DNA of 64,000 nucleotides, from NCBI RefSeq assembly GCF_963576675.1, contig NC_088918.1:61521001-61585000 (forward strand), written 5' to 3'. This document shows, in pieces, positions 825-21,892 of the stretch. Source of the stretch: Euphorbia lathyris. Its lineage: Eukaryota; Streptophyta; Magnoliopsida; Malpighiales; Euphorbiaceae. The notes under the pieces are model-generated. The model saw only the letters and a list, made by a program, of their open reading frames with translations. It had not been told where the DNA came from and ran no database searches. How positions within the stretch are numbered: position 1 is the stretch's first letter; every line of letters starts with the position of its first letter. A program made the translations under genes and the position numbers.

Positions 825-2644
825 TGAAGGGAAATAGGCAAACGTTTGGCAGCGGAAATATAAATTTTTTAACCTTTTTCCATTAACCCAAGATCCTTTA
901 ATCGTTATTTCATATAAAGAGGGATAGAAGGAAATACCTTTTGATGTTCTATCTACCGTTGCAATCGAAGTGCCCACAACTCTTACTTCGAGTTCCCGAG
1001 CACAAAACAAAAACACAATTCAAGACCAAATTAGAATTCAACCGTATGAAAGCAATCAAGAATAGATTGCCTCTAATTAATCAACACAAGATCAAGGAAT
1101 GGAGAAAGAGATTAATCAATCGAAACGGAAGGAAGCGGTGAATGATCTCGTCCTCAATAAGGGGTCGAAATTTCTCTCTCTTCGGTAGACAATAGCCTTA
1201 GCCGAAATTTACATATAAAGGGGGTATATATACTCTCTTGTTAAATAGAATTAGATTACTGAATAAGAATTTAATTTGGAATATAAAATTCTTATTTATT
1301 ATCTATAATTATATCTAAATATAAAGATAATAATAATAACCTTTTAGGATAATAATAGGAGCAATTTAATCTCATTAAACCTCCTAACTTATTTATCCTT
1401 TAATTAATTTAATTCACAATCATAATCTAATTAGGATTGCTTAAAATCAAATTAATTTCTTTATGTATTTTATACATAAAAATCGCCCCCTTTACTTACT
1501 AGGCATTAGTGGACTCAGTTGGGCTTCCATCAATTAATTAACATCTGTTTCTCTTTTGGGCTCCAAGTTTTATGTGTGACCCATTAGGTTCTTATTGCTT
1601 CTAGCCGCATGCAACTATTAAATTAATTTTCTCAGAATTATATTTAATCTTTGCATAATGGAATGAGTACACGAAATGTGATTAGCAAATCCGAAACATT
1701 CCCCTAGAGCTATAAGAAGACAGGTTGATTCTGTCGTTGACCTTTCCGTATTAGTTACAGTATAATTCGATCCTTTATCAACTACATCCTTGAACTGAAT
1801 CTTATGACTATGGATAATGTCAAGTCACATATAGCGAGACGTTCGTTTTACTTGTACATGCCGAGTTAACTCCAATTAGACAGGTTAAGTGAAATTTGTA
1901 TTTCAAGTCTTAAGTTATCACCTTGCAAGGATTTATAGTCAAGTCTTCCACAAGCGATCCTTGGATGTATCTCCCATTTATCGGAGTGACAAATGCTCAA
2001 TCCAATGTATAACTATCCTACAATTACTTCCTGTGATACCCAACGTCTGCCGTTCACACCCCAGAGTCATCTCTATTATGGATCGTGTTACAACAGGATC
2101 AAAGCATCACATTCTATAATCCAGAATCACTAATTAACATTCCTTTGAGTCTGGGGATTACTTATACCTATTAATACCAATGAGATGAACATATGACAAG
2201 GATAAATCTACCCATCCTGTTATCTCAAGTCGGGTCCCCAATCCTAATGAACTCCCTTTCATTGGATCCATGTAACTGTCCAGATATCTGCATATCTGAA
2301 GCTTGTGAGTTCAGCTCTCTGTCTCGACAGAAGACATTGTTACATGCAAGTCTCAACAGTGATATGTCAATCCTATTTCTAAACATATTACTTGACTTGG
2401 GGTGGTTTTAAGTTTATTAGTTTATTATAAAGTTTCGTCTCACTTCATGCTTGTATGAACACTTTATAATCACTTTAAACAAACTTAGGGATTTCCTTTT
2501 ATTAGACTTATTTAGTTCTTAAAAGAGGTTGCCTTTATATAGTTATGAAACCATATCTTATTAAAACAAATGATGTAAAGAACACTTCATTTACATTAAG
2601 TTTATATCCTAGAACAATTGTCTATAGGACACTAAACCCCAACA
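825..2644 (-). repeat. 3' LTR of the copia element
   Basis: This 1820-bp repeat is nearly identical to 20057-21887 over its full length. In element orientation it starts TGTTGGGGTTTAGTGTCC and ends TTCCCTTCA. A TATA-like TATATATA lies at 1225-1232. Confidence 0.93.
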
Positions 2645-2656
2645 TACTCCCACTTG
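2645..2656 (-). other. Polypurine tract of the copia element
   Basis: On the minus strand AAGTGGGAGTA directly precedes the 3' LTR (TGTTGGGG), the expected plus-strand priming site. Confidence 0.75.
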
Positions 2657-2658
2657 GA

Positions 2659-5600
2659 CTAAAGCCAATTGTTTCTACAAGTTATCCCAGTAGAACTTAG
2701 ATGACGATTATGTACTTTCTGGGCTAAGGGCTTTGTCAACGGATCTGCAACGTTGTCCTTAGTGGGTACTCTTTCTATTCTCACATCTCCTCTTGCCATA
2801 ATCTCTCTTACAATGTGGTATCGCTTCAAGTAATGCTTGGATGCATTATGAGACCGTTGTTCCTTTGCTTGTGCAATGGCTCCATCGTTATCATAGTACA
2901 GTGTAATAGGATTTACAATGTCAGGCACCACACCAAGTTCAGTAATGAACTTCTTAATCCAAACCGCTTCCTTTGCTGCTTCCGCAGCAACGATGTACTC
3001 TGACTCGGTCGTAGATAAAGCTACGCTTCCCTGCCTGGAACTCTTCCAACTGACCGCGCCCCCATTCAAGATAAACAGGTATCCTGATTGGGATCTAAAA
3101 TCGTTCTCATATGTGAGATGACTGGCATCTGAAAATCCCTCTATTTTCAGATCCCCTTCTCCGTACACTAGGAACATGTCTTTAGTCCTTCTCAAGTACT
3201 TAAGAATGTTCTTGACAGCATTCCAATGCTCGTCTCCCGGATTACCTTGATAACGACTCGTTATACTTAACGCGAATGCTACGTCAGGTCTAGTGCATAG
3301 CATAGCATACATAATCGAACCGATTGCGCTGGCATACAGGATTACAGCCATGCGTTTCTTATCATCTTCGGTTTTAAGACATTGATGATTGCTTAACTTT
3401 ACTCCATGTACCATGGGTAAGTTACCTCGTTTCGATTCAAGCATGCTAAAACGCTTTAGCACCTTTTCAATGTATGTAGCCTGTGAAAGACCAAGCAGTC
3501 TTCTTGATCTATCTCTGTAGATCTTTATACCAAGTATATAAGCTGCTTCACCAAGGTCTTTCATGGAGAAGTTACCTGATAACCAAACTTTTACCGACTG
3601 TAGCAGAGCTATATCATTTCCCATTAATAATATATCGTCCACATATAATATTAGAAATGCAACTGAGCTCCCACTTGCTTTCTTGTAAATGCAAGCTTCT
3701 TCGCAATTTTGTTCGAAACCAAATTGTTTTATGGTTTCGTCAAAACGCTTGTTCCAACTTCTAGATGCTTGCTTGAGTCCATAAATGGATCTCTGTAGTT
3801 TGCAAACCTTCTTTGCATCCTTTGATATGAAACCTTCAGGCTGCATCATATATACATCCTCAAGCAGGTTTCCATTTAGGAAAGCTGTTTTCACATCCAT
3901 TTGCCAAATCTCGTAATCGTGGTGAGCGGCAATAGCGAGCATTATTCTGATTGATTTGGACATAGCCACAGGAGAGAAAGTTTCGTCATAATCAATTCCT
4001 TGTTTCTGACGATATCCTTTCTCTACTAACCTAGCTTTGTTGGTGCTAACCTTTCCATCCATGCCAGTCTTCTTTTTGAAGATCCACCTGCACCCAATGG
4101 GTTTTATCCCTTCGGGTGGATCAACCAAAGTCCACACTTGGTTGGTGTACATGGAATCCATCATGGCCTCGAGCCATGCTTTAGAATCTGGACTGGTAAG
4201 AGCCTCATCTCCCACTAGAAAACCATATCTAATTGGGAGTTCACGAACTCTTTGTGATCTACGAATGGGTGGCACTTGAGTCTCATCCAAACTGCTTCGG
4301 GTTCCTCAACCGCCTCTGTTGTTTCAGTCGGTGCTTCTTCTTCTTGAACTTCATCAAGTTCAATCATGCTTCCCTTTTCTGTTTCTTCGAGAAACTCTTT
4401 CTCCAAGAAGGTTGCGTGCTTGGATACTATTACTTTCTGATCATCTGGATGATAGAAGTAATACCCTACAGTTTCCTTAGGATATCCAATGAATAAACAT
4501 TTATCAGATTTAGAATCTAGCTTGTCTGATGCTACGCACTTGACAAATGCTGAACAACCCCATACTCTCATGAATGAGAATGTGGGTTTCCTACCAACGA
4601 ACAATTCATTTGGTGTGGAACTAGCGGATTTAGTTGGTACTCGATTTAGGGTGAAGAGGGAAGTTTCTAAGGCATAGCCCCAAAATGTATTTGGAAGTAA
4701 TGCTATGCTCATCATAGATCGTACCATATCTAGTAAGGTACGGTTCCTCCTTTCGGATACACCATTGTGTTGTGGTGTATAGGGAGGTGTCCATTGTGAG
4801 CATATCCCACATTCAGTTAGATAATTCAGAAAATCATCTGAAAGATATTCGCCACCTCGATCGGATCGAAGTATCTTTATTTTCTTTCCTAATTGATTTT
4901 CTACTTCATTCTTGAATCATTTGAATTTCTCAAAAGCTTCGGACTTGTGCTTCATCAAGTAAATATAACCATATCTGGTATGGTCGTCTATGAAGCTTAC
5001 GAAGTATCTGAATCCTCCTCTTGCTTGGACTGACATAGGACCGCATACATCTGAATGTATTAATCCTAGAGTGTCTGATACACGCTCAACTTTATTGCTA
5101 AAGGGTGTCTTTGTCATTTTACCTTTTAAACATGCTTCGCATGTTTCCAATGATTCAAAATCAATTGAATCTATAAGCCCATCTTGATGTAGCTTAAGCA
5201 TGCGTCTTTTGTTTATATGGCCTAAACGACAATGCCACAAGTAAGTCGAATTATCTAGCTTATGTCTTTTGGTATCAATTGCGAATACAGAAATTTTATC
5301 ATCTAGCACATAAATCCCATTTTGTGATATTCCTGAAAAATAGAAAATCCCATCTCTATAAAACTCGCAATGTTTGTCTTTTATTGAAATATGAAAATCG
5401 TCGTCAACAAGACGGCTAATAGAAATAATGTTTCTGGACATTTCTGGAACATACAAATAGTTCCCTAATTCTATTACAAACCCAGAGGGCAAGCTCAAAA
5501 CATAATCTCCAGCAGCGATGGCAGCAACTCTTGCTCCATTTCCTACTCGCAAGTTTATGCTTCCTTTCTTCAATTTCTTAGTCCGTCTGAGTCCCTGAAT

Positions 5601-5903
5601 GTTCATACAAATATGAGATCCACATCCGGTATCTAATACCCAAGATTCAGACTGTGAAATTGTATTTATTTCAATATAAAACATACTAGATGTTGAAGTC
5701 CCGACTTTTCCCTTCTTGAGGGTAGCTAGGTACACCAAACAGTTTCTTTTCCAATGCCCGTCTTCACCACAAAAGTGGCACTCTCCTTTGGGCTTCTTCA
5801 CTTCCTTCCCCTTTGTTTCGGTGAGCATGGCCCCCTTGCCTTTCTTAGGATGGTTTGGATTGGGGGAAGTTCCCTTTCCTCTTCTTTGATCCTTCCATAG
5901 CAA
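2659..5903 (-). pseudogene. Copia pol: zinc knuckle, protease, integrase, RT, RNase H (broken)
   Basis: Domains in order are: CCHC knuckle CHFCGEDGHWKRNC (about 5780), aspartic protease with WVLDTGCGSHICMN (about 5650), GAG-preintegrase HCRLGHINKRRM (about 5230), integrase core (about 5080-4700), reverse transcriptase 4290-3300 with LYVDDILLMGND, and RNase H with DASHLTYEND and STTESEYIVAAEAAKEA, ending at 2659. Defects seen are a shift joining gag to pol near 5880, an in-frame TGA at 4917-4919 inside integrase, and another shift near 4285 between integrase and RT. These are few, so the copy decayed recently. Confidence 0.92.
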
Positions 5904-6516
5904 AGGCCGGTATTCCCTCGTTTTCTTTCATATTGGGCTCGACTGTCTCGAGCATATTTGCAAGCTCTTCAAGAGAGGTTTGCAAGCCATTCACCTGATA
6001 GTTCATGATGAACTGTGAATAACTCTCGGGGAGGGATTGAAGAAGTAAGTCTACACTTAGTTCATGATCCATCGCATCTCCAATACTAGAAAACTTGGTA
6101 ATAAAGCCAATCATCTTGACACAATGTGTCATTATAGATGTGCCCTCCTGCATCTTGCATCTATATAACTGCTTTGTTATCTCGTAGCGTTCGCACCGAG
6201 TTTGATTCCTAAACAACTCTTTCAGGTGCGCGACCATGGAATAGGCATCCAGCTCCTCATGTTGCCTTTTCAATTCCGGTGTCATTGATGCAAGTATGAT
6301 GCATCCCGCGTGATCGTCATCAGCCTTATGCTTCAGGTAAGCATAAAACTCTTGGTACGGAGCATCATCCGCCGGGTAAAGGGGTATCGGTGTATCAAGT
6401 ACATACCCAATCTTATCGAACTTCAAAACGATTTTGAGGTTGCGATACCAGTCGGTGAAGCTTGAACCGTTCAACTTGTTATCAGTAAGTATATTTTGTA
6501 GATTGGTTTTAGTCAT
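5845..6516 (-). CDS. Copia gag polyprotein, N-terminal capsid part
   Basis: A 223-codon frame starts MTKTNLQNILTDNKLNG and continues with the UBN2-type capsid pattern WYRNLKIVLKFDKIGYVLDTP, followed by LASMTPELKRQHEEL and a helical C-terminal half (about residues 60-205). The product forms the shell of the virus-like particle. In an intact element gag is in one frame with pol. Here the frame ends at 5845 after a single-base shift around 5880, and the zinc-knuckle region continues in another frame. The start is set by the first ATG after the leader. Confidence 0.85.
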   Translation of the reverse strand: MTKTNLQNILTDNKLNGSSFTDWYRNLKIVLKFDKIGYVLDTPIPLYPADDAPYQEFYAYLKHKADDDHAGCIILASMTPELKRQHEELDAYSMVAHLKELFRNQTRCERYEITKQLYRCKMQEGTSIMTHCVKMIGFITKFSSIGDAMDHELSVDLLLQSLPESYSQFIMNYQVNGLQTSLEELANMLETVEPNMKENEGIPAFAMEGSKKRKGNFPQSKPS

Positions 6517-7674
6517 GATTTTAGGAGTGTTTTAATTTAACCTGAGAGTGAGAAAGAGTAAACGTACGTTATTCATTTGCTTTAAAATCTATCAATCTAA
6601 AAATATAGGTCTTTTAATTCATTTTAAATTGCTCCCACTATTTTGCCAAATTAATAGCCCTCCATATTAATTCAAAGAATTTCTCAAATCCTTTAGTGAG
6701 CTAGGATCCTAACTCCTGAGATTTCACCTTAAGTTTGCTCAACAAGCTAGTCTCATTTGTTAGGTAGATTCATGTAATCAATCACATCTTTAATGTGATT
6801 CCTAGGTTATTGGGTTACTAACCACATTAGTAACTAATATGCTATTCATATTAATCCCAACCATATTGCCCATTAGTTTATGATAACATGAGTTTGCTCA
6901 TCCAATTATCATAATCTAATTTAAGTATTACCCCATATTCATGAAAGAACGATTTTCGATAATTCAGGTGTTACTATAAGGCCCCGAGCTTGAGTTTTCT
7001 CAACAACCCAAAGGCCCCCAGTACTGCCGGCTGAATTATAATATTAGGGAGGGGCAACCGATTTTAATAACTTGCTTATTTACTTAACTTTTAATTAGTG
7101 AGGGATTTTTATTTTAAGTCTCATAATCTAACTTAGTCTTGATTTTCTTTAGCATACATCAGACACATACATTGGTGTTATGGACATATTATCTAAATTA
7201 TTCTGTCGAGCCAGAGACGGAATAAAATGCCAAACCTAGGGAAATACTAACTATTACATATTTCTCTTTAGGTCATCCGTCTTCTCCATGGCGCCTTGAA
7301 ATTACATATTAATTTCTATACTACTAAAGAAAACTTCAATGAACTTGAAGGGAATTAGATGAGAGGAGAAATTACAATAGATAGTAGATAGGCAGGACTC
7401 GCATGCCCTATTTCAAAAATACCTAAAGACTAAATAGAGGGTCCAAATATGTCCATAACTCCAAACATACATAGACTCAATTAAATAAATTTAATTGGTT
7501 GATTACATAAAATACTTATGTAATATTTAGGTTAATCACACTAACTCATCAAATTAACTTTCATCCAATTTTAATTCTAACAGTTTCGTATCTTCTATAT
7601 TAACCTTTTAGATCAATACAGCTATACAAAACTTTATTTATGCATATCCCAATTATTTTGATTTTAATTCATTT
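6517..7674 (-). other. Copia leader, gag-proximal part
   Basis: AT-rich non-coding sequence lies between the gag start and the nested gypsy insertion. With 19430-20040 it makes a leader of about 1.8 kb. No open frame of note was seen. Confidence 0.7.
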
Positions 7675-7679
7675 AATAC
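7675..7679. repeat. Target-site duplication AATAC (left) of the nested Tat element
   Basis: The five bases before the TG end of the left LTR are repeated after the inverted LTR at 19425-19429. The surrounding sequence is copia leader on both sides. Confidence 0.85.
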
Positions 7680-8865
7680 TGTTTGCACCAAAAATAAAAT
7701 CTTCCTGATGTATACCCTGGTTTACTCTTTTCATGGATAAACTTTTCTTTTTAGGAAACTTTTTCTTAAAAGAACATTTTAGGAAACTTTTCCTTAAAAG
7801 GCCTGTTTAGGAAACTTTTCATTTCGGGAAACTTTTCATATTTTCCTAGTACATCGTTCACTTAGGATTTCCTAGAGTGAACCTCAGTTTCCCTCAAGAG
7901 AAACATCTAAAATACTGTACCAACTTCCTAGACGGTGTACCTTAGGGGAAACCATGTAGTGTACCTCATGGGAAATCATAGTGTACCTCGTGGGAAACCA
8001 ACTTCCTATAGCGGACATCAGGGGGGGACTTAAAGTAAACATATGGGAAATCATAGTGTACCTCATGGAAAATCATAGTGTACCTCATGGGAAATCAACT
8101 TCCTATAGTGGACATCAGGGGGGGACTTAAAGTAAACATATGGGAAATCATGTAGTGTACCTCATGGGAAATCGTAGTGTACCTCATGGGAAATCAACTT
8201 CCTATAGTGGACATCAGGGTTAAAGTAAACATAGGGGAAATCATGTAGTGTACCTCATGGGAAATCATAGTGTACCTCATGGGAAATCAACTTCCTATAG
8301 TGGACATTATGGGGAACTTAAAGTAAACATAGGAGAACCAAGTGCCAGCTAATATTTTAACGTGTTTTCGTGAGCCAATTAAAAAGCAGGAACAATCAGA
8401 AAGTGTACGTATCAATCCATCATGGAAGTTAAAGTGGAGGTTACTCAATGTGGTGGAGAACGTGGATTAGTGGAAGCAAGCAGGAAGTTACCTCCAACAT
8501 TTATAAATGGAAGGAATCACGATGAAATAAGCCAATCAACCAACTTAACAACAACTACCCAAAACTCTAGCAAATTATCTCTAGACTTTAGCATTTTTAC
8601 AATTCTCGATTGTTTCCTTAGATTTAATTTTCAAGTGCAAATTTCATTCAAGCTTCCAGTACATTTTTATTTTATTTGTTGTTCAACCATTTTCTGTAAG
8701 GTCGGTATCGTTTTGATAATCGAATCTTAGGAATTTTACGGTCTCTTTATTCCTTACAATCGTTTTGATAATTAGAAGTTAGCAAGCGCACTTAATTTCA
8801 CTCCATAGTTTGATAATACTATAATTATCTGGCACGCCCGTAATTTCCCACGAAAGAGCCAAACA
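7680..8865 (+). repeat. 5' LTR of the Tat element
   Basis: 1186 bp, from TGTTTGCACC to GCCAAACA, so the ends form a TGTTTG/CAAACA inverted repeat. The middle holds a tandem array (7920-8330). The sequence is almost identical to the reverse complement of 18213-19424. Confidence 0.88.
7920..8330 (+). repeat. Tandem repeat array inside the Tat LTR
   Basis: Units begin with CTTCCTATAG-like sequence near 7923, 8002, 8099, 8198 and 8291, a period of roughly 80-99 bp. Each is built of shorter 24-26-bp blocks around GTGTACCTCATGGGAAATCA. The inverted LTR has the matching array at about 18765-19185. U3 enhancer repeats are a known feature of LTR elements; function here is inferred. Confidence 0.8.
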
Positions 8866-8870
8866 AAAAT

Positions 8871-8888
8871 TGGCACGCCCAGTGGGAC
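8871..8888 (+). other. Putative primer-binding site of the Tat element
   Basis: TGGCACGCCCAGTGGGAC begins five bases (AAAAT) after the LTR end. It starts with the TGG that pairs with a tRNA CCA end. The tRNA was not identified. A related TGGCACGCCC sits inside the LTR end at 8831-8840. Confidence 0.55.
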
Positions 8889-8897
8889 CCAATCACA

Positions 8898-10446
8898 ATG
8901 CCACCGAAGAAAAGTGATAAGAGCAACAAAGATCCTGTAGTTGCAAGTTCTGAAGAAGATGAGGTCATGGTAACAGGCAATGTTCCACAGATGGTGGGAC
9001 GAATCGAAGGGGAAAAGGTTACTAGCCCTAGAGGAGAATCATGGATCTCTACAAAGATCCAAAATTCACCATTCTTGGAGAGGCGTTTCAGTTCCATCGA
9101 GAAGAATGTGGAAGCTCTGCGGAGTGACATAGATCTGAAGATGGATAAAATACTCCAGAAGCTGTCAGAACCAGGGGTAATCAAGAATGGAGAAAACCAT
9201 GGTCCTCAAGGTTCCCAGATTCCAATGGGGGACGTGGGTTGTTCGGCGCTGAGAAGTATCAAATTCCACCCTTGAGGGACGATGTTGTCTTGCAGAAGGC
9301 CGCTAGTTCAGCAGGCCGAGAAAATAGTGGTAAGTCACCTGTTTCTCAATATTTTGGAAACACTAATCCTACCTCCCACACAGCTTCGTATCATGAGGAG
9401 GCAGGAGGCCACCATATCACTGGGGACATGGGGGGCAACTATAGAGGCAATAGAAGGACCACTGGATTTCTTCATATGACTTACGGTCACCATCAGAATG
9501 GCATGCCTCAACAAGTTCCAGCATTCAATATGGAGGCTGTGAGAGAATTTGTCCAAGAGCTGTATGGGCCTGGCCTTCGTTAAGTTGGCCGCCCTGAGTT
9601 CCACAAGCCTTACCCTCATGCGATTGACATGGAGAATCCTTACCCAAGGGGATACAGAGTACCTGACTTCTCCCTATTCTCTGGGGAAGATGGCTTGTCA
9701 ACTTTGGAGCACGTAGCAAGGTTCACGATCCAGTGTGGAGAACTTGCCAACTACCTAACTTCAACCATCTCAAGTTGAGGCTCTTCCCAAATTCTCTGAC
9801 GGGACCAGCCTTCACTTGGTATGCTACTCTCCCTAGGGACTCCATCCATGGTTGGCAAGATATGGAGAGGCAGTTTCACACTCAATTCTTCCGAGCAGAG
9901 CCAGAAGTATATGTTGCAGAACTCTCTAGGCTTACTCAGAAAGGAGGTGAAAGAGCAGACCAGTTCATTTCTCGTTTCAAGAAAATGAGGAACAGATGCA
10001 ATGTCTATCTCCCAGAGGTGGAGTACGTGAAGATGGCGCAGAGGGGACTTGACATCGAGCTGAGGGAGAAGTTCCAAGGAATGGAGTTCAGAGACTTTTA
10101 TGAGTTAGCTGCCAAGGTGACACAGTACGAAGATCTGTTGAGGGAAGAGAGTCATAGAAAGAAGAGTGTCATGGGAACTTATTGCCAAGAAATATACCAC
10201 GAGGTTGTAGTGGCAGATCTTAAAAGTACAGGGACTCATGTTTTCCCCTTACTCCACTCCACCGGAGGACATGATGCAGCAAAGAAATCTTTCAATGATA
10301 AACCTCCACAATTCAGCTTTGATGTGTCCAAAAGTGATGCTCTCTTTGACTTTCTCTTAAAGGAGAAGTTTATTACTTTGCATGCAGGTCATAAATTGCC
10401 AACAAAAGAGGAAACCAAAGGGAGGAAGAAATTGAAAAGTTGCTGA
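8898..10446 (+). pseudogene. Tat gag, broken, missing its protease end
   Basis: The frame opens at MPPKKSDKSNKDPVV, has a helical N-terminal segment (9080-9170), shifts near 9237, has a stop at 9581-9583 and a second shift near 9765. The conserved gypsy gag domain is clear at 9780-10150: FPNSLTGPAFTWYATLP, FHTQFFRAEPEVYVAELSRL, FISRFKKMRNRCNVYLPE. After KSDALFDFLLKEKF the sequence passes at about 10425 straight into the reverse transcriptase motif EEIEKLLKAGFIRP. No DTG/DSG aspartic protease and no zinc knuckle are seen, so an internal deletion at the gag-pol join is inferred. Confidence 0.85.
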
Positions 10447-13400
10447 AAGCTGGATTCATAAGACCAATCAGGTATGCTCAATGGTTATCTAATGTTGTAC
10501 CGGTGGTAAAGAAGAATGGCAAGCTACGAGTTTGTGTGGACTTCAGAGACCTTAATACAGCAACTCCGAAGGATGTGTATGTGATGCCCATGGTAGACAT
10601 GTTGGTGGATGCAGTAGCTAACAATGAGCTTTTATCTTTTTTAGATTGTGTGGCAGGATATAATCAAATTGCCATTGCTGAAGAAGATACTTCAAAGACC
10701 GCCTTTCGATGTCCAGGAGCTATTGGGACATTTGAGTGGCTGGTCATGCCTTTTGGCTTGAAGAATGCAGGTGCTACCTACCAAAGAGCCATGAATGCCA
10801 TTTTCCATGATATGATTGGAAAAAATCTGGAGGTTTACATTGATGACATCGTCATAAAGTCCAAAAAAGAAATGGAGCACATAGATCACTTGAGATGTGG
10901 TTTTCAAAGGATGAGGGAGCATCAACTAAAACTCAATCCTCTCAAGTGTGCTTTTGGGGTGAAAGCTGGAAACTTCCTTGGGTTCCTGGTGCACTAAAGA
11001 GGCGTGGAGATAGATCAGAACAAAGCCAAGGCGATCATGGAGTCCAAATCCCCTCAAACAAAAAAGGAGCTTCAGCGTTTCTTGGGGCAAGTGAATTATC
11101 TCAGGAGGTTCATCTCCAACTTGGCTGGAAAGTCTAAGACATTTTCTGATTTGCTGCGGTAAAAGAAGGAAGATGAGTTTAAATGGGAGGAACACCATCA
11201 GCAAGCCTTCTAGAGTATCAAAGAGTATCTATGCCAACCTCCTGTACTTATGCCTCCAAGGCCAGGTGTACCTCTGAAACTTTATCTATCTGCCGCTCAT
11301 GATTCCATTGGATGCTTGTTAGCACAAAACAATTCCAAAGGATATGAGCAGGCAATATATTATTTGAGTAGATTCTTGAATGCAACTGAGGTAAAATATT
11401 CACCAATTGAGAAACTCTGCCTTACATTGTATTTTGCTTGTACCAAACTGCGGCATTATATGATTGGGGCAAGGGTGTTGGTGGTATCTCAAACTGACTT
11501 GATCAAGTACATGTTGAATAAGCCGCTCATAACTGGGAGGATTGGAAAGTGGTCGCTGGCTTTGGCAGAGTTTACTCTGGTGTACTATCCTCAAAAATCA
11601 GTGAAGTGGCAAGCACTTGCAGATTTCCTTGCAGATCACCCTTGTCTTGATGTGAAGGATGAAATAGATCAAGATCTACCAATCTTCAGTGTTGAAAAAT
11701 CCCGCTGGATTTTGAAATTTGATGGATCTAGCACCGAGACATCTGCAGGAGCAGGAGTAGTCATTATATCCCCCATGGGAACCAAAACAACAATGTCTTT
11801 CAACCTAGATTTCAAATGTACGAACAATCAGGCTGAATATGAAGCTGCGGTCATTGGCCTAGAGATCTTGAGGGAGTTAGGAGCAGATGAAGTCTTGATC
11901 CAAGGGGATTCCCAACTCGTGCTGAGGCAACTATCAGGAGAATACAAATGCACTAGTCTCAGCTTGGCTCCATATTATACAGCCGATGTTCAACTACTGC
12001 AGGAATTCAATGACTTTTCCTTTCTTCATGTTCCAAGAGAGATGAACTGGGAGGCTAATGAGCTAGCTCAAATAGCCTCTGGTTTGAAAATGTCGGAAGA
12101 ACTCACCCATAAGTTGATAATGATCAAGAAGCTCAGACATCCTTCCATCATAGAGAGGGGAATTCAAGTGGAGACATTCAATACAGATGTCAATCTAGCT
12201 AGTGACTGGAGGAGTCCTATCAAGGAGTATTTTTCGAACCCAGGAAGACGAGTACCTTATTCCCTCAAGATTAGAGCATTGAACTTCTTGTTGATGGAAG
12301 GTGACTTGTACCGCAAAAATGTAGATGGACTTTTGCTGAAATGCTTAGGATTTCCAGACAGCATGGAAGTTATGAAACAAGTCCACGAAGGAGTATGTGG
12401 AGCTCATCAGGCAGGCATCAAGATGAAGTGGCTCATCAGGAGACATGGGTACTTCTGGCCATCTATGCTGAAGGATTGTATGTCTTATGCAAAAGGATGT
12501 CGCCAATGCCAAAGATATGGGCAGATTCAAAGAGTTCCTGCAGATGAGATGTACACAGTCGTCAAGCCATGGCCCTTCAGAGGATGGGCAATTGATTTGA
12601 TAGGGAAAATTTATCCTACATCATCAAAAGGGTACAACTTTATGATCGTGGCAACAGACTACTTCACAAAATGGGTAGAGGCCTTACCAATGAAGAAAGT
12701 GGACCAGAGAGATGTTGTGAAGTTCATCAAGGAGAACATCATTCACAAGTACGGGATCCCTCAGTCAATTACCACAGACCAAGGAACCATGTTCACCGGA
12801 GATGACATGAAGGACTTCATGGAAGATTATGGAATCAAGTTGTTGCACTCTACTCCTCATTATCCACAAGCTAATGGTTAAGCTGAGGCCTCCAACAAAG
12901 TTCTCATCAACATCATTGAAAAGATGATCGAAGATAACCCTAGGGAATGGCACGTCTTACTTTCAGAAACTTTATGGGCATACAGAACATCAAAAAGGAG
13001 TGCCACAGGCGTCAGTCCTTTCTCATTAACATATGGACATGATGACGTGCTTCCTATGGAGGTAGTAGTGCCGTCCCTGAGAGTAGCCAGACAAAATGAA
13101 CTCACTCCAGCAGAATACACAGAAGCTATGATGATGGAACTTGAAGGATCTAATGAAGCTAGAATGCAAGCACTTGATCGAATGATCGCCCAGAAAAAGA
13201 AAGTAACCAAAGCATACAATAAGAGAGTGAAGAAAAAGACCTTTGAAGAAGGAGACATGGTTTGGAAACTCATCTTACCAGTTGGGACTAAAGATAGAGC
13301 ATATGGAAAATGGTCTCCAAATTGGGAAGGACCGTTCAAAGTCTTCCAAGTTCTAAAAGGAAACTCTTATTGGTTAGCCAGCTTGCAAGGGGAGCCACAT

Positions 13401-13475
13401 AAGAGGTTCATCAATGGAAAGTACCTCAAGAAATTTTATCCCACTCTTTGGGAACTGAGGGAGCATCAGCCATAG
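10440..13475 (+). pseudogene. Tat pol: RT, RNase H, archaeal-type RNase H, integrase
   Basis: Reverse transcriptase covers 10440-11000, with VCVDFRDLN and the catalytic YIDDIVIKS. The first RNase H follows (about 11270-11650), then a second with WILKFDGSSTETSAGAG and DSQLVLRQLSGEY (11700-12080), which is the extra archaeal-type domain of Tat elements. The integrase has a zinc finger ending CRQCQRYG (about 12500), the core with AIDLIGKIYP, TTDQGTMF and a C-terminal tail ending at 13475. Stops interrupt it at 10995-10997, near 11160, near 11212 and at 12879-12881. Otherwise the frame is preserved, so decay is moderate. Confidence 0.92.
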
Positions 13476-13657
13476 GATATAGGCAATATGTATTTGATGT
13501 AACGCAAAGCAATTTCACTTTGAAAATTGTAAAGCTGGCTTATAGTCGCTATTCTGTTTGCAATAAAATAATAGCAGGCCTCAAGGCCGCAATTTATTCA
13601 TCAAGCAATGTCTATCAAATATGTTTAACAAAGAAATCTATCTAGAAGGGAATCAAA

Positions 13658-16384
13658 TCAAACATCCTCTAAATCTATGGTCTTCAGATCTTCCCAACAA
13701 GCCCGAGAAGCAGATCGAAGTTTTTGACGTTCGGCAACCCATGCTTTAGCTCGGTCATAGTTTGATCTCAAAGAGTTTTCCATGAGTCTCTTTTTCTCCC
13801 ACCTATCTTTCTAGAGGTGGCGCAACTTTTCACCTTGGACTATCGAGCTCATCAGTTCATCTTCAACTGTCTTCAATAGTTTCTTGACTTCTTCCATCTT
13901 TTTATACCTTTGGTCGATCAATTCAATGGAAGACTCAACTTCTTGGTCAGCAATAGAGTTACTTTCACACAACTTCTGGTAAAGGAGGTGATCAGAGGCA
14001 CATGAATCTAACTTGTCACTTAAGAGAGCCAACTGAGGTTTCACAGCAGAGTAATCAGAATGCCATGAGTGAACTTGAGTCTTGAAGTTAGTCAAGCGTT
14101 TCTTAAACTCAGCAGAAGAGGAGAGGTGAATAAGATCATCAATAGTCGAAAAGAGCATCGTCAAATGTTGAGTACAAATTGAGGATATATCAAGATCAAG
14201 TATCGATCGTATCATATTCTTAGAGGCATAAGTATGGTCTTTATCAGGTGCATCACTATGAGTGTCATTCTCAAGAAAGGAGAAGTCGATGTTAGAAGAA
14301 GGATCCTCAAGAGGAAAAGCTTTTACTCCAGCAATTCTATCTAGGAGTGCCTGATCAAAAGTAAAGAAATCTATTAAAAAAAAATAATAATCCTAAAGTT
14401 GGAAGTTGGTTTCATTTACCTCAGATCTAGAAACAATGGGAGTGTCATTCTTTGATGGAAGTTCCCCTACATGGTCTATGATGGCTAGATCAGAAGAAGA
14501 TGGAGGTTGAGGGATATTGACCACGCCTGAAGCAGGGATCTCACCTACTGATGGCGAAGTACAATCAACTTGTGCTACAGAAAGTACACCATCATGCTCT
14601 GCCTAGTTGCCTTCATCATCTGGGTCAATGGTATCAGCCGGAATATCAGAGGACTTGTCCATTTTTTGCCTTTTTAAAGGAGGGGTATCATCTTCCAAGA
14701 GTCTCTCATCTGAATCTAAATCCAAATCTTCAAAGTTAACTTGGGCAAGGAAAGCAAAATCTGCTTCAGGGAAGTCGTCGAGGTCGATAGATTCATCAGG
14801 AGCAACATCAGCCACAACAACATCACTATCTTCATCTTCATTGGCATCTTCCTCATCAACCACCTTCCCTGTGTGGAGTATGTGTGAATGGTCTGGTTCA
14901 AATCAGAGATGAGAGGAAGTAGAAAGAATTCAATCAAGAAATTTACCTGATGCTTCTACCTTTTGTTGAAGGTAAGGAAGGCGTAAAGACCACCACTGGT
15001 CAAACTCATTAGTAACAATTGAAGAGGCCTTGCCCACTTTTGACAATTTAAAGTGAAAACCATCATTGAGAAGCCGATGTACACGAGATTCAGAAGCTTT
15101 GTAACGTTCTTCCAAAGGGAGCAAAGGAGGAGCAGGAATGACCTGAATGAGGCCAAACTGTCGAGCACATAATGCTGGCCAATACAACTCGAAACACGCC
15201 GCCGTCCCTGTGATAGTTGGCTTGAAGGTGGCACCGACATGGAGGAAACGAGTTGATAAGAACGACTTCCACATTTCATATGTCTCATCCAGGTTGATTG
15301 TAGAAGCTTTCATTATTCTTCCAGATTCTGGCAGTCTAGAGAAACAATAAGTGAACCTCAACGGAGGCTTATCTTTCAAACAAGAGAAAAACTTGAAGAA
15401 CTTCCTGGTCTGGGTCATTTTGGTTCTACAACTCATCAGAGACCGACCAATGGGCATAGATATGTCTAAAACAGAACTTTGAAGCTGAGGAAAGTAAGCA
15501 AGGAGCCACAATTGAACGATCCAGAGGTTTCCACCAAGGCGGGTGAAAGGTTCATTAGAGACCACGTGGGCAATGTGATGATAAGTTGCACCCAACAACA
15601 TGGATCCTAAAGCCAATTTTTTCCCAGTTGCAAGCTCATATGCAATCTCCTTGTATTCTGCAGTTACTTTGCCAGATGCAGTGCAAAAAATATATCGGCA
15701 AACAAGAGTCCACAAAAACAGAAAATGATCAACCCGCTTTCTCTTTGGAGGATGATTAGCCATATATTCGATCAGCCTCACCCAATCCATAGTTCTATAC
15801 TTCTTGAAGAATTCTGGAAGCTCATGTCGAACTAAGGAAGGTATCTCAGGACCAACCACTGGTAGTCCTGTTAGTGCAAGCACATCCCTCAAGGTAACAT
15901 TCATCGGTATAGGTGGAAATAGAAAAGCATTACAGTTATGTGACCAGAAACCCAAAGCTGCATACAAAAGATTCTTGTTTACTGGAAGCTCTATCTGGGA
16001 CATTTTAATCAACTCATTGATTCCAAGATTGCACCATTGTCTCTCATACGTCGGCTTCAACCGATTCACCCAGGTAGACCATGCTTTTGTGGCATTTTCA
16101 CTAGCAAGACGGGGCCAACTTTTGCATTTAACATGTCGGCCGGTGAGAAGACCAGATTTCATCAAAAGAAGTTCTCCCTCTTGAGATATTGGAAAAGGCA
16201 CTTGAGGAGGTTTGTCTCGACCAGTCGGCAAAAGAGCATACAATTCATCATCATTAAAATTCATCTTGATTGTGTCAGGTTGGTGTGCTTTTCCGAGTTC
16301 ACCAGCACTTTTTCCAGGAGGATTTGGGTGTGACTTTCTTAGAGGTGGAGCAGTTGGTTTCTTGATAAAAGGGGTTTCTGCCAA
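13658..16384 (-). pseudogene. Antisense extra gene of the Tat element: plant mobile domain plus coiled coil
   Basis: Three exons fit: 16384-14947, 14868-14420 and 14350-13658, with GT/AG borders. Exon 1 encodes a plant mobile domain (PMD, aminotransferase-like family) with LTGLPVVGPEIPSL, FLFLWTLVCRYIF and GGNLWIVQLWLLAYFP. Exon 2 encodes an acidic Asp/Glu-rich linker with a basic LKRQKMDK patch; exon 3 a coiled coil. Amber codons at about 14602-14604 and 13811-13813 break an otherwise open frame that runs to TGA at 13658. The 3' end converges on pol, 183 bp away. PMD proteins have been reported as captured cargo in plant transposons and, in MAIN/MAIL1, as silencing factors; the role here is unknown. 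Confidence 0.82.
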
Positions 16385-17889
16385 GTTAAAGCTAAAAATT
16401 AAATTTTTTAAAATTTCGGCAGCATTTCCCCTTAAAATTTTAAAGTCCCAAAAATCATGTCAACACAAAATTGCCCTTTCACGATTGTCATCATTCACCA
16501 AATATCAAACATCAAACACATTTGAAGTCCATTAAATTTTATTCACAAGTTTGATGGTAAGTTTACCTTTGGAAGACATCTTGGCGGTGATTTCGAGTAA
16601 AGGAGTTGCACTTCAGCTAGACGCAACCTCAAGTTTGGTAACACCTTGATTAAAGGAAACCGATCAATGATTGATCTGGCCTTTAATCCTTGAGGCCTTC
16701 AAATCTTTCGTCAAAAGAGGAATCGGTTGTGCACGTATTCTCAGAGACTTCAATCAAAGGTACAAGCGAGCAAAGAGTTAGTAGTGCAATCACGAAGAAC
16801 TTGTTAGCACCATGATTAAAGGAAATCGATCAATGATTATCAATGATTGATCCGGCCTTTAATCCTTGCTATCGGTAAGCGTTTCGTCACAACACGAACT
16901 GACTTGATTGAGAAGAGTCTGCGAGGGAAGAATCTGCAATTTAACCGAAGAAAAGAAATTATTATTCTCATGGAAATTCGAGATGGCCGTACAGAAAAGG
17001 AAAGCAAAAAACAAAAAAAAAAAGATAGAAAATAAAACCACTGTTTTGTCACGACTGAAATTGGATGAGCATGGACAGCAAACCAGCTTCTTGAACCTGA
17101 GAAAGTGCAATTGGTGGAGCAATAAACTTAATCTTGAAGATCTTGGACTCTATTATTTCTGATGTAGACAGTCAGAGCTACGAAAGAAAACGATCAACGC
17201 CGTAAATCACAAATCAGCGGGATGAGCATAGGATGCTGGCAGAAGACATATCAATTTGGAGAATAGTGTTTATTGTTGCAGTTGAGAAGATCCCGGGCAG
17301 AGAGGCAGAGCTGCAAATCAAAATCCAAACACCATCTTCTGCTTTTGGGTAATCTGTTTATGAACGCTACGAAGTTTGCTGTGCACTAAGAATTTTTGCG
17401 GCAAGGTTGTACAGGTACTTAGAAAGGTTGTTTTACATAGTGCTGTGTATATATATAGTTTAATTGAGATTTGTTTTGTTAAAGATTCCTTTCTCTTGTG
17501 GGTTTCAAACTTCTAATTAATTACAAACTCTTTGCACCGATTGGATCCCTATTGTTACTCTATTTTAGTTTTGTTTTTTATATTCAGAGTTTTTATTTTG
17601 TTTCTAACTAGGACTTAGTTTATTTTTTTTTTTTTCTAACTAATCCTACATAGATTTCACTTCAAACGTTAATCTTTCTCGTAAATGATTAATTAATGGT
17701 TGGGTTAGTTTTTTAAATTTATTTATTTATTTATTTATTTTTTTAAGATTAGGATTAGTTTTCTTTATGTTAATTAGGAGTAACGTTTTTTTTTAAGAGT
17801 TTTTCATTGTTTTGTCCACTTTGAATTTTTTGAAGTCTAAAAGATTTTTTTATTGCGGGGTCCAAGTATAAATTTTCGTCTCTCAAATC
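16385..17889. other. Region between antisense gene start and polypurine tract
   Basis: This holds two similar hairpin-forming segments (about 16640-16690 and 16805-16865), each with GATTAAAGGAAA and a matching CCTTTAATCC about 30-40 bases later. After them comes low-complexity T-rich sequence (17560-17860). It probably contains the promoter of the antisense gene; no convincing TATA position was assigned. Short open frames at 16840-17160 have no recognisable product. Confidence 0.5.
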
Positions 17890-17892
17890 CAT

Positions 17893-17908
17893 GCTTGTGG
17901 GGGGCAAT
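17893..17908 (+). other. Polypurine tract of the Tat element
   Basis: CTTGTGGGGGGCAAT lies immediately before the TGTTTGCACC start of the direct 3' LTR, the position required for plus-strand priming. Confidence 0.75.
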
Positions 17909-18200
17909 TGTTTGCACCATAAATTAATTTTACAATTCCTAGTTGTTCCCTTAGATTTAATTTTCAGATCTAAAGTCTATTCATTTCTCAGTACAATTTT
18001 TATTTTATTTGTTGTTCAATCATTTTCTGTAAGGTCGGTATCGTTTTGATAATCGAATCTTTTAGGAATTTTTCGGTCTCTTTATTCCATACAATCGTTT
18101 TGATAATTAGAAGTTAGAAAGCGCACCCAATTTCACTCCATAGTACGAGAATACTATAATTCTCTGGCACGCCCGCAATTTCCCACGAAAGAGCCAAACA
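17909..18200 (+). repeat. Direct 3' LTR of the Tat element, internally deleted
   Basis: 292 bp that keep both LTR ends (TGTTTGCACC and GCCAAACA) but lack about 890 bp of the middle, including the tandem array. It is clearly more diverged from the 5' LTR than the inverted copy is; for example, CGAATCTTTTAGG replaces CGAATCTTAGG. Confidence 0.82.
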
Positions 18201-18249
18201 AAAATTAATTTTTGTTTGGCTCTTTCGTGGGAAATTGCGGGTGTGCCAG
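18164..18249. repeat. Head-to-head LTR palindrome with zero spacer
   Basis: An 86-bp near-perfect palindrome (one mismatch, GCACGCCC against GGGTGTGC) is centred between 18206 and 18207. Between the two CAAACA/TGTTTG LTR ends lie twelve bases, AAAATTAATTTT. The first six match the bases that follow the 5' LTR at 8866-8871. Confidence 0.92.
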
Positions 18250-19424
18250 ATAATTATAGTATTATCAAACTATGGAGTGAAATTGAGTGCGCTTGCTAAC
18301 TTCTAATTATCAAAACGATTGTAAGGAATAAAGAGACCGTAAAATTCCTAAGATTCGATTATCAAAACGATACCGACCTTACAGAAAATGGTTGAACAAC
18401 AAATAAAATAAAAATGTACTGGAAGCTTGAATGAAATTTGCACTTGAAAATTAAATCTAAGGAAACAATCGAGAATTGTAAAAATGCTGAAGTCTAGAGT
18501 TAATTTGCTAGAGTTTTGGGTAGTTGTTGTTGAGTTGGTTGATTGGCTTATTTCATCGTGATTCCTTCCATTTATAAATGTTGGAGGTAACTTCCTGCTT
18601 GCTTCCACTAATCCACGTTCTCCACCACATTGAGTAACCTCCACTTTAACTTCCATGATGGATTGATACGTACACTTTCTGATTGTTCCTGCTTTTTAAT
18701 TGGCTCACGAAAACACTTTAAAATATTAGTTGGCACTTGGTTCCCCTATGTTTACTTTAAGTTCCCCCTAATGTCCACTATAGGAAGTTGATTTCCCATG
18801 AGGTACACTATGATTTCCCATGAGGTACACTACATGATTTCCCCTATGTTTACTTTAAGTCCCCCCTGATGTCCACTATAGGAAGTTGATTTTCCATGAG
18901 GTACACTATGATTTCCCATGAGGTACACTACGATTTCCCATGAGGTACACTACATGATTTCCCATATGTTTACTTTAAGTCCCCCTGATGTCCACTATAG
19001 GAAGTTGATTTCCCATGAGGTACACTATGATTTCCCATGAGGTACACTACATGATTTCCCATATGTTTACTTTAAGTCCCCCCTGATGTCCGCTATAGGA
19101 AGTTGGTTTCCCACGAGGTACACTATGATTTCCCATGAGGTACACTACATGGTTTCCCCTAAGGTACACCGTCTAGGAAGTTGGTACAGTATTTTAGATG
19201 TTTCTCTTGAGGGAAACTGAGGTTCACTCTAGGAAATCCTAAGTGAACGATGTACTAGGAAAATATGAAAAGTTTCCCAAAATGAAAAGTTTCCTAAACA
19301 GGCCTTTTAAGGAAAAGTTTCCTAAAATGTTCTTTTAAGAAAAAGTTTCCTAAAAAGAAAAGTTTATCCATGAAAAGAGTAAACCAGGGTATACATCAGG
19401 AAGATTTTATTTTTGGTGCAAACA
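18213..19424 (-). repeat. Full-length inverted LTR of the Tat element
   Basis: 1212 bp, the reverse complement of the 5' LTR with very few differences; an incidental 102-codon frame inside both LTRs differs at only two codons. It ends TGCAAACA at 19424, directly followed by the AATAC duplication. Confidence 0.9.
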
Positions 19425-19429
19425 AATAC
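19425..19429. repeat. Target-site duplication AATAC (right) of the nested Tat element
   Basis: It directly follows the CA end of the inverted LTR and supports a single integration event through two U3 ends. Confidence 0.85.
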
Positions 19430-20040
19430 TTTTGATTTACAAATAGGTAAAATAAACTTTTAAATAAATTCTTTTATCCGATAATCAAAAACAGAAAACT
19501 ATTAATTTCTGAAACATATATGTATATAAATATATTTAAAGCTATTTTAAAACGATTTTAAAATATATAGGTTTCGGGCCGGGCCCGAACACATGGTTGT
19601 TGCCGTTTGGCAGCAGCCACTGTGTCTGGTCCGCTGTTGCCTTGCTGCCGCGAGGCAGCAACCGCAGGACAGCGGTCGGGTTGCGCCTCACGAGCTGCTG
19701 TCCATTTTTTTTAAAATTATATATATATATATATATCAGTTTTAAAACGATTTTCAGAAAAAAAGAAAAACCTATTAAAGATTTTCCGTTTTATCTTTAG
19801 AATAATAAAACTAACTTTTATTTATCTAACTATAAAACTAATAGATTTTGTTATAATGATTATCAACCAAAATAATTAGGAACATATGCATAATCTATTT
19901 TAATTAACAATTAATTAAAACTTATTTATCTTTAGAATTAATTAATCAAAACAGTTTCGTTAATTAACCTAACTATAAATATTCATTCAATCTGATTGAA
20001 AAACTTCTTAATTTTCATATATGAAATAACGGATTTAACG
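19430..20040 (-). other. Copia leader, primer-site-proximal part, with a GC-rich hairpin
   Basis: This is AT-rich except for a GC-rich patch at about 19575-19705. The patch includes an 8-bp perfect stem with a 4-base loop at 19640-19659 (TTGCTGCC / GGCAGCAA) and further GGCAGCAGCC-like repeats. Such structures in leaders can act in RNA dimerisation or packaging; that role is inferred. Confidence 0.55.
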
Positions 20041-20055
20041 CAGGCTCTGATACCA
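20041..20055 (-). other. Primer-binding site, initiator tRNA-Met type
   Basis: On the minus strand TGGTATCAGAGCCTG follows the 5' LTR after one base. TGGTATCAGAGC is the classic plant initiator tRNA-Met primer site of Ty1/copia elements. Confidence 0.93.
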
Positions 20056-20056
20056 C

Positions 20057-21887
20057 TGAAGGGAAATAGGCAAATGTTTGGCAGCGGAAATATAAATTTT
20101 TTAACCTTTTTCCATTAACCCAAGATCTGTTAATCGTTATTTCATATAAAGAGGGATAGAAGGAAATACCTTTTGATGTTCTATCTACCGTTGCAATCGA
20201 AGTGCCGACAACTCTTACTTCGAGTTCCCGAGCACAAGACAAAAACACAATTCAAAACCAAGTTAGAATTCAACCGTATGAAAGCAATCAAGAATAGATT
20301 GCCTCTAATTAATCAACACAAGATTAAGGAATAGAGAAAGAGATTAATCAATCGAAACGGAAGGAAGCGGTGAATGATCTCGTCCTCAATAAGGGGTCGA
20401 AATTTCTCTCTTCGGTAGACAATAGCCTTAGCCGAAATTTACATATAAAGGGGGTATATATACTCTCTTGTATCTAAACCCTAGTTAGATAGAATTAGGT
20501 TACTGAATAAGAATTTAATTCGGAATATAATTCTTATTTATTATCTATAATTATATCTAAAGATAAAGATAATAATAATAACCTTTTAGGATAATAATAG
20601 GAGCAATTTAATCTCATTAAACCTCCTAACTTATTTATCATTTAATTAATTTAATTCACAATCATAATCTAATTAGGATTGCTTAAAATCAAATTAATTT
20701 CTTTATGTATTTTATACATAAAAATCGCCCCCTTTACTTACTGGGCCTTAGTGGACTCAGTTGGGCTTCCATCAATTAATTAACATCTGTTTCTCTTTTG
20801 GGCTCCAAGTCTTATGTGTGACCCATTAGGTTCTTATTGCTTCTAGCCGTATGCAACTATTAAATTAATTTTCTCAGAATTATATTTAATCTTTGCATAA
20901 CGGAATGAGTACGCGAAATGTGATTAGCAAATCCGAAACATTCCCCCAGAGCTATAAGAAGACAGGTTGATTCTGTCGTTGACCTTTCCGTATTAGTTAC
21001 AGTATAATTCGATCCTTTATCAACTACATCCTTGAATTGAATCTTATGACTATGGATAATGTCAAGTCACATATAGCGAGACGTTTGTTTTACTTGTACA
21101 GGCCGAGTTAACTCCAATTAGATAGGTTAAGTGAAATCTGTATTTCAAGTCTTAAGTTATCACCTTGCAAGGATTTAGAGTCAAGTCTTCCACAAGCGAT
21201 CCTTGGATGTATCTCCCATTTATTGGGAGTGACAAATGCTCAATCCAATGTATAACTATCCCGCAATTACTTCATGTGATACCCAACGTCTGCCGTTCAC
21301 ACCCCAGAGTCATCTCTATTATGGATCGTGTTATAACAGGATCAAAGCATCACATTCCATAATCCAGAATCACTAATTAACATTCCTTTGAGTCTGAGGA
21401 TTACTTATACCTATTAATACCAATGAGATGAACAGGTGACAAGGATAAATCTACCCATCATGTTATCTCAAGTCGGGTCCCCAATCCTAATGAACTCCCT
21501 TTCATTGGATCCATGTAACTGTCCAGATATCTGCATATTTGAAGCTTGTGAGATCATCTCTCTGTCTCGACAGAAGACATTGTTACATGCAAGTATCAAC
21601 AGTGATATGTCAATCCTATTTCTAAACATATTACTTGACTTGGGGTGGTTTTAAGTTTATTAGTTTATTATAAAGTTTCGTCTCACTTCATGCTTGTATG
21701 AACACTTTATAATCACTTTAAACAAATTTAGGGATTTTCTTTTATTAGACTTATTTAGTTCTTAAAAGAGGTTGCCTTTATATAGTTATGAAACCATATC
21801 TTATTAAAACAAATGATGTAAAGAACACTTCATTTACATTAAGTTTATATCCTAGAACAATTGTCTATAGGACACTAAACCCCAACA
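20057..21887 (-). repeat. 5' LTR of the copia element
   Basis: This 1831-bp repeat is the partner of 825-2644 and abuts the primer-binding site on its inner side. It differs from the partner by scattered substitutions and a small insertion around 20470-20485. Confidence 0.93.
20455..20462 (-). promoter_or_regulatory. TATA-like box in the copia 5' LTR
   Basis: TATATATA, flanked by GAGAG upstream and CCCCC downstream on the minus strand, sits about 400 bp from the inner LTR end. The same motif is at 1225-1232 in the 3' LTR. The position fits a U3/R boundary, but no transcription start can be seen. Confidence 0.4.
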
Positions 21888-21892
21888 CAACC
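21888..21892. repeat. Target-site duplication CAACC (right) of the copia element
   Basis: Second copy of the 5-bp duplication. Removing one copy keeps the MULE reading frame open across the junction. Confidence 0.9.

What the first reader, a model, noticed from the sequence alone, without database searches (positions are those of the whole stretch)
7680..19424. A Ty3/gypsy insertion bounded by LTRs in inverted orientation
The left LTR (7680-8865) is direct and the right outer LTR (18213-19424) is its reverse complement, nearly identical, yet the insertion is flanked by a perfect 5-bp duplication AATAC in otherwise continuous copia leader. Both integrated ends are therefore U3 ends. Normal integration uses one U3 end and one U5 end. 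A third, direct LTR with a large deletion lies inside. This suggests integrase joined an aberrant cDNA with two U3 termini, or that an inversion and gene conversion reshaped a normal copy.
Basis: partly seen in the sequence, partly recalled or inferred. Interest (0 to 1): 0.88.

Follow-up and report, generated by a model that had tools for sequence, protein, structure and literature searches.

The report
Retrotransposon insertion with two U3 ends
A plant jumping gene was inserted as a mis-made DNA copy whose two ends are both the 'front' end, apparently because a spare end-piece was joined on backwards while the copy was being made; it looks like a rare copying accident rather than a new kind of element.

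Summary
A Ty3/gypsy insertion (7680-19424) lies in the leader of a minus-strand copia. It is flanked by the 5-bp duplication AATAC and bounded by a direct LTR (7680-8865) and an inverted LTR (18213-19424) that differ at 12 of 1189 aligned sites. Both integrated ends are U3 ends.

New results. (1) The element is a chimera: outer LTRs from a short non-autonomous subfamily ('a'), interior and the deleted inner LTR from an autonomous Tat-like subfamily ('b'). The switch falls at the U5 end/primer-binding site (8827-8888). (2) Inner and inverted LTR are joined tail to tail by AAAATT/AATTTT: the LTR-PBS spacer plus one base on each side, as expected of two unprocessed U5 cDNA ends. (3) This joint was found once in the 1.02-Gb genome. 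(4) Of 29 other family loci read, one (L009) is a second, differently built two-U3 insertion.

Best explanation: one integration of an aberrant cDNA made by plus-strand transfer between co-packaged templates, with an LTR-length DNA joined U5-to-U5. Genomic inversion/conversion and misassembly fit poorly. It is a new variant of known template-switch 'complex' insertions. Not obtained: reads across the joint, paralogous empty site, primer tRNA, full survey.

The parts
825..21887 (-). Host copia element, LTRs 825-2644 and 20057-21887, duplications CAACC 820-824 and 21888-21892
   Evidence: Pfam RVT_2 and gag_2 on the minus strand; LTRs 43 mismatches of 1817
7675..7679 (+). Left target-site duplication AATAC
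7680..8865 (+). Left LTR, subfamily a, TGTTTGCACC...GAGCCAAACA
8866..8870 (+). LTR-PBS spacer AAAAT
8871..8888 (+). Primer-binding site TGGCACGCCCAGTGGGAC (18 nt assumed); a/b switch lies between diagnostic sites 8827 and 8888
   Evidence: primer tRNA not identified
8889..17908 (+). Interior of subfamily b: 96.5% to L046 from PBS to 10420, 95% at 10418-15789, 86% to L047 at 15804-16603, almost no match at 16604-17786; lacks about 2 kb of L046 at about 10420; ends in PPT CTTGTGGGGGGCAAT (17894-17908)
9733..10443 (+). gag fragment (Retrotrans_gag)
10440..12878 (+). RT (10440-10994) and two RNase H-like domains with integrase core (11250-12878), in separate ORFs
14933..16384 (-). Antisense ORF with Plant mobile domain (PMD)
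17909..18200 (+). Inner direct LTR of subfamily b, about 400 bp of U3/R missing, join in TTTT near 17928-17931
18201..18212 (.). Tail-to-tail joint AAAATT.AATTTT: spacer plus one base of each of two U5 ends
   Evidence: found once in the genome at up to 3 mismatches
18213..19424 (-). Right outer LTR, subfamily a, inverted
19425..19429 (+). Right target-site duplication AATAC

Best explanation
The insertion is one integration event of an aberrant cDNA whose two ends were both U3 ends. Shown by sequence: outer LTRs of subfamily a in opposite orientation, 5-bp duplication, interior and inner LTR of subfamily b, an a/b switch in the U5/PBS interval, and a tail-to-tail joint made of two full U5 ends (LTR + AAAAT + one more base). 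Inferred: RNAs of a and b were in one particle. Plus-strand strong-stop DNA of a transferred to the PBS of the b minus strand and gave the left LTR. An LTR-length DNA of a, ending at the tRNA-derived end (spacer plus a copy of A76), was joined U5-to-U5 to the right end of the b cDNA, by end joining or by a template jump between ends. The ~400-bp loss in the inner LTR fits a misplaced first-strand transfer at TTTT, or a later deletion. Integrase then used two U3 termini, which carry the same TG..CA tips as normal ends, and made an ordinary 5-bp duplication.
For: Duplication and two U3 ends. Outer LTRs 12/1189 different and each other's closest match in both single-copy parts among L009-L037. 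Inner LTR 36/282 different from the left LTR, far more than the host copia's own LTRs (43/1817), so that difference predates the insertion. Outer LTRs are less diverged than the copia LTRs (Fisher p 0.008), as a nested insertion should be. Against 14 non-autonomous loci (at least 10 of 14 agreeing) and L046, 12 of 12 diagnostic sites at 8616-8882 are type a and 29 of 30 at 8888-9078 are type b, one neither. The joint has the spacer plus one base on both sides with no loss. Right ends of L015, L024 and L042 also read AAAATT and then leave the PBS sequence. The joint was found once in the genome. L009 is a second two-U3 insertion.
Against: No reads across the joint were seen. The primer tRNA was not found (search did not complete), so the one-base A76 reading rests on the position of TGG after the spacer. 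Subfamily b is represented at the PBS test by one copy (L046); site 8882 varies within b (L041). The 3' part of the interior (16604-17786) hardly matches L047, so L046/L047 is a relative, not the parent. L031 is nearly as close to the left LTR as its partner in the first 250 bp (99.2% against 99.6%). Why the joined piece is exactly one LTR long is not shown; a full a-type cDNA that later lost its interior by LTR-LTR recombination would look the same. L009's flanks match only as ACTT (CACTT against ACTTC). L015, L024 and L042 have no clean 5-bp duplication, so their ends may have other causes.
Confidence: 0.78

Rival explanations
1. A tail-to-tail dimer of two complete cDNAs (b and a) integrated, and the a half later shrank to one LTR by LTR-LTR recombination.
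For: Explains the U5-U5 joint, the two U3 ends and the duplication. Solo LTRs of this family occur, for example L013, L014, L018, L023. L009 can be read as a dimer with a central deletion.
Against: The left LTR would have to be type b unless a cross-template plus-strand transfer also occurred, and it is type a. Needs one more step.
Confidence: 0.13
2. A normal direct-LTR insertion was reshaped in the chromosome by inversion and gene conversion between LTRs.
For: Conversion between LTRs is a recognised process (general knowledge). The right LTR's homology to the left LTR ends at the spacer, so a conversion tract could also end there.
Against: Does not give two full U5 ends plus spacer+1. Outside the LTR there is no shared flank; U3 of a and b share only about 11 bp at the tip. 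The inner type-b LTR stays unexplained.
Confidence: 0.05
3. Two independent insertions, the inverted LTR being a separate solo LTR that landed at the element's right edge.
For: Solo LTRs of the family exist.
Against: The inverted LTR has ATTTT on one side and AATAC on the other, not a duplication. AATAC flanks the whole complex. Left and right LTRs are a closest pair.
Confidence: 0.02
4. Misassembly or a fold-back read artefact.
For: A palindromic joint is a place where artefacts arise; no reads were available.
Against: The palindrome arms differ by about 12% (35 of 282) and continue into different sequence, so they are not a folded copy. The right flank continues the same copia with AATAC. 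L009 shows a comparable form elsewhere.
Confidence: 0.02

Closest known systems
Template-switching complex LTR retrotransposon insertions (Sabot and Schulman 2007, PMC1950507; whole main text read)
   Same: More than two LTRs, near-identical outer LTRs, one flanking 5-bp duplication, explained by co-packaged different RNAs and one integration.
   Different: Their complexes carry an internal LTR shared by two complete cores, explained by a switch between R regions; the text describes no inverted outer LTR or U5-U5 joint. Here the right outer LTR is inverted, there is one core, and both ends are U3. L017 in this genome looks like their type (three direct LTRs, ATCAT).
LTR swapping between autonomous and non-autonomous partners (Du et al. 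2010, seen only as a title in the reference list of PMC5668417; content recalled)
   Same: LTRs of one partner combined with the interior of another.
   Different: Here only one side is swapped; the other side keeps the b LTR and carries an inverted a LTR.
Retroviral 2-LTR circle joints (recalled, no call)
   Same: Unprocessed cDNA ends joined end to end, keeping bases beyond the LTR tip.
   Different: Those join U5 to U3 of one molecule into a circle; here U5 joins U5 and the product integrated.
DIRS elements with inverted LTRs (PMC5633606, passages)
   Same: Terminal repeats in opposite orientation.
   Different: DIRS uses a tyrosine recombinase; this element has an integrase core domain and a 5-bp duplication.

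Membership tests
Ty3/gypsy LTR retrotransposon, Tat-like | RT before integrase on one strand with gag upstream | tested here: met
   Pfam gag 9733-10443, RVT_1 10440-10994, RNase H and rve 11250-12878
Ty3/gypsy LTR retrotransposon, Tat-like | Second, RVT_3-type RNase H domain (recalled as a Tat mark) | tested here: met
   RT_RNaseH and RVT_3 in window 11250-12878; no tree was built
Template-switching complex insertion | One duplication around the whole complex | tested here: met
   AATAC both sides
Template-switching complex insertion | Highly similar outer LTRs | tested here: met
   12/1189 between them, against 36/282 and 35/282 to the inner LTR
Template-switching complex insertion | Two complete cores with a shared internal LTR | tested here: not met
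   One core; right outer LTR inverted
DIRS / tyrosine-recombinase element | Tyrosine recombinase instead of integrase | tested here: not met
   rve integrase core domain, AATAC duplication
Unprocessed U5 cDNA ends at the joint | Spacer to PBS kept in full on both sides | tested here: met
   AAAAT+T on each side
Unprocessed U5 cDNA ends at the joint | Extra base equals a copy of tRNA A76 | not tested
   tRNA gene search did not complete

The most novel reading that the evidence does not exclude
Two-U3 cDNAs are a recurrent, integration-competent by-product of reverse transcription in this family: surplus plus-strand strong-stop (LTR-length) DNA is joined in reverse to the far end of a cDNA, and the integrase accepts two identical U3 ends in vivo. 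The window (joint after spacer+1) and L009 (joint inside the PBS) would be two snapshots of that route.
Probability: 0.4. Interest if true: 0.75.

Novelty: new variant of a known kind. Interest (0 to 1): 0.62.

Why it matters
If right, it is a natural record that a plant retrotransposon integrase can pair two U3 ends in vivo, and it preserves the uncut U5 terminus of the cDNA, normally lost at integration. It also catches a cross-template plus-strand transfer between a non-autonomous and an autonomous partner with the switch mapped to the PBS, a step that could drive LTR swapping. Programs that require direct LTRs would miss such insertions, so their frequency could be tested by a search for inverted LTR pairs with one duplication. 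A transcript across the tail-to-tail LTRs would fold into an LTR hairpin; one paper proposes that such LTR arrangements could help start silencing (PMC11624286, passage only). Whether this copy is transcribed is unknown.

Tried and rejected
Separate solo-LTR insertion at the element's edge: rejected, no duplication around the inverted LTR. Simple genomic inversion: rejected as main reading, because it does not give spacer+1 on both sides. Fold-back artefact: unlikely, the arms differ. Propagating two-U3 family: not supported; the joint is found once, and among the 40 of 845 first-look candidates that one search scored only the window matches the inner-LTR probe contiguously. AATT-overlap priming at the joint: rejected, since overlap would give AAAATTTT, not AAAATTAATTTT.

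Rfam scan of the window: 0 matches. Literature: searches returned no paper; some returned 1, 9, 4, 3, 15 (8 listed) and 6. By listing or passage none of those I looked at describes an integrase-type LTR element with two U3 ends. I opened PMC1950507 (whole text), PMC12789967 (passages, other matters), PMC5668417 and PMC5633606 (passages), PMC8786324 (an inverted insertion), PMC2151762 (a primer scheme) and PMC11624286 (passages); the rest were seen as listings only. This covers only the held open-licence library.

Open lead not closed: one search counted 591 U5 ends at up to 2 mismatches (313 forward, 278 reverse) but listed only the first 100, up to C3:330417, which include neither the window nor L009. 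Read by eye, those 100 hold one forward end followed within 20 kb by a reverse end: C1:120236332 (+) and 120237893 (-). Its letters could not be fetched, so I do not count it.

Rows left out: of the 29 loci L009-L037 (chosen from the best LTR matches, not at random), 14 with a 5' LTR joined once to a PBS were used for the a/b site test; the other 15 (solo, truncated or with repeated U5-PBS units) were not. In some searches the inner LTR was cut two bases short (17911 for 17909); the mismatch counts are over the U5 part and do not change.
Full report
What is there. The window lies in a 1.02-Gb assembly of 33 contigs at C9:61521001-61585000. A minus-strand copia element occupies 825-21887, with its own duplication CAACC on both sides and LTRs that differ at 43 of 1817 sites. 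Inside its leader sits the insertion of the finding. The left LTR is 7680-8865 and the right LTR is 18213-19424 in opposite orientation; they differ at 12 of 1189 aligned sites plus repeat-length changes. AATAC stands on both sides. Both outer termini read TGTTTGCACC inward, so both are U3 ends.

Coding content. Pfam finds gag (9733-10443), reverse transcriptase (10440-10994), two RNase H-like domains and integrase core (11250-12878), and a Plant mobile domain in an antisense ORF (14933-16384). The doubled RNase H points to the Tat branch of Ty3/gypsy (recalled; no tree made). The coding region is split over several ORFs, and about 2 kb present in a relative (L046 2495-4512) is missing at about 10420.

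Two parents. The LTR probe finds many copies (50 matches from 40 scored of 881 candidates), several in pairs about 1 kb apart: a short non-autonomous element, here 'a'. These copies match the window's LTR at 86-96%, partial matches of 630 bp or more included, but its PBS and gag start at only about 78-82% in the loci L009-L028 that one search compared. The inner-LTR probe finds instead longer elements. One, L046/L047, has 693- and 697-bp LTRs, the same PPT, and an interior 96.5% identical to the window from the PBS to 10420, but only 91% over the U5 of the left LTR: subfamily 'b'. Further on the match is 95% (10418-15789) and 86% (15804-16603); 16604-17786 has almost none (two pieces of about 50 bases). 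So L046/L047 is a relative and not the parent. Site by site against 14 a loci and L046, 12 of 12 diagnostic sites from 8616 to 8882 are a, and 29 of 30 from 8888 to 9078 are b, one neither. Because 8882 varies in b (L041), the safe interval is 8827-8888, which contains the PBS (8871-8888). This is where plus-strand transfer takes place.

The inner joint. The inner LTR (17909-18200) is a b LTR that has lost about 400 bp of U3 and R at a TTTT match. It is followed by AAAATT, then AATTTT, then the inverted a LTR. The left LTR is followed by AAAAT and then TGG, the usual start of a PBS. So each side of the joint keeps the whole spacer and one more base. That base is what a copy of the last tRNA nucleotide would give, if primer removal leaves it as in HIV-1 (recalled). 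Three other right ends (L015, L024, L042) also show AAAATT and then leave the PBS sequence, which is consistent with AAAATT as the natural cDNA end. None of the three has a clean 5-bp duplication, so such ends may have entered by end joining or have another cause. The joint was found nowhere else in the genome at up to 3 mismatches.

Timing. The outer LTRs are less diverged than the copia LTRs (p 0.008) and are each other's closest match among the loci compared, though L031 is close behind in the first 250 bp. The inner LTR differs from the left LTR at 36 of 282 sites, more than the age of the host copia allows. So the a/b difference came in with the insertion, not after it.

A second case. 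L009 (C3:12078000-12084500) has a direct LTR 1601-2715, a PBS and 0.9-kb interior, and an inverted LTR 3659-4745; the pair differs at 12 of 1087 sites. Read by eye, its interior stops at CCAC, continues with AAAAGAGCC of a U5 end, then turns at CC into the reverse of LTR-spacer-PBS (15 nt of PBS). Flanks read CACTT and ACTTC: a 4-bp match, or 5 bp with one base lost. Across the 29 loci L009-L037, 17 show an exact 5-bp duplication at the outer ends (L010-L014, L017-L019, L021-L023, L026, L029, L032, L035-L037; two of these, L012 and L021, are TATAT in repeats), three match 4 of 5 (L027, L028, L031), L009 is shifted, and the other eight lack a clean or complete pair. One of 29 (L009) has inverted outer LTRs. 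These loci are the best LTR matches, not a random sample.

Mechanism. The simplest account is a particle with a and b RNAs: a-type plus-strand strong-stop DNA moved to the b PBS and made the left LTR; an a LTR-length DNA was joined U5-to-U5 at the right; integrase used the two U3 tips. The switch at the PBS and the joint of intact U5 ends are read from the sequence; co-packaging, the source of the right LTR and the joining enzyme are inferred. A complete a cDNA joined tail to tail and later reduced to one LTR is the main rival.

Comparison. Sabot and Schulman describe complexes with a shared internal LTR, similar outer LTRs and one duplication, explained by template switching between co-packaged RNAs (PMC1950507, whole main text). 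This insertion shares that logic but fails their two-core form and adds an inverted end. In the searches, within the held library only and mostly from listings, I saw no paper on two-U3 insertions of an integrase-type LTR element. I therefore call it a new variant of a known kind.

Noticed in passing
L019, L017, L013, L028, L037, L009: Several LTRs end in tandem 41-bp units of U5 end + spacer + PBS, so that the LTR itself, even a 3' LTR or a solo LTR, contains PBS copies.
   Followed up: partly
L010 3906-7937: Both LTRs carry repeated ~300-bp U5+PBS units at their 3' end, inside an ATAAC duplication.
   Followed up: no
L017 563-6266: Three LTRs in the same orientation with two interiors and one ATCAT duplication: it looks like a Sabot-Schulman type complex.
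   Followed up: no
window 8830-8839: A PBS-like TGGCACGCCC lies inside U5, shortly before the LTR end; perhaps a decayed U5-PBS repeat.
   Followed up: no
G000 C1:120236311-120241014: A forward U5 end faces three reverse U5 ends within 5 kb: a possible third tail-to-tail case; letters could not be fetched.
   Followed up: partly
window 14933-16384 (-): Antisense ORF with a Plant mobile domain inside the retrotransposon interior; the DNA of this stretch also matches L046/L047 (95% and 86%), whose reading frame was not checked.
   Followed up: partly
window 16604-17786: Stretch before the PPT that hardly matches the b relative L047; origin not determined.
   Followed up: no
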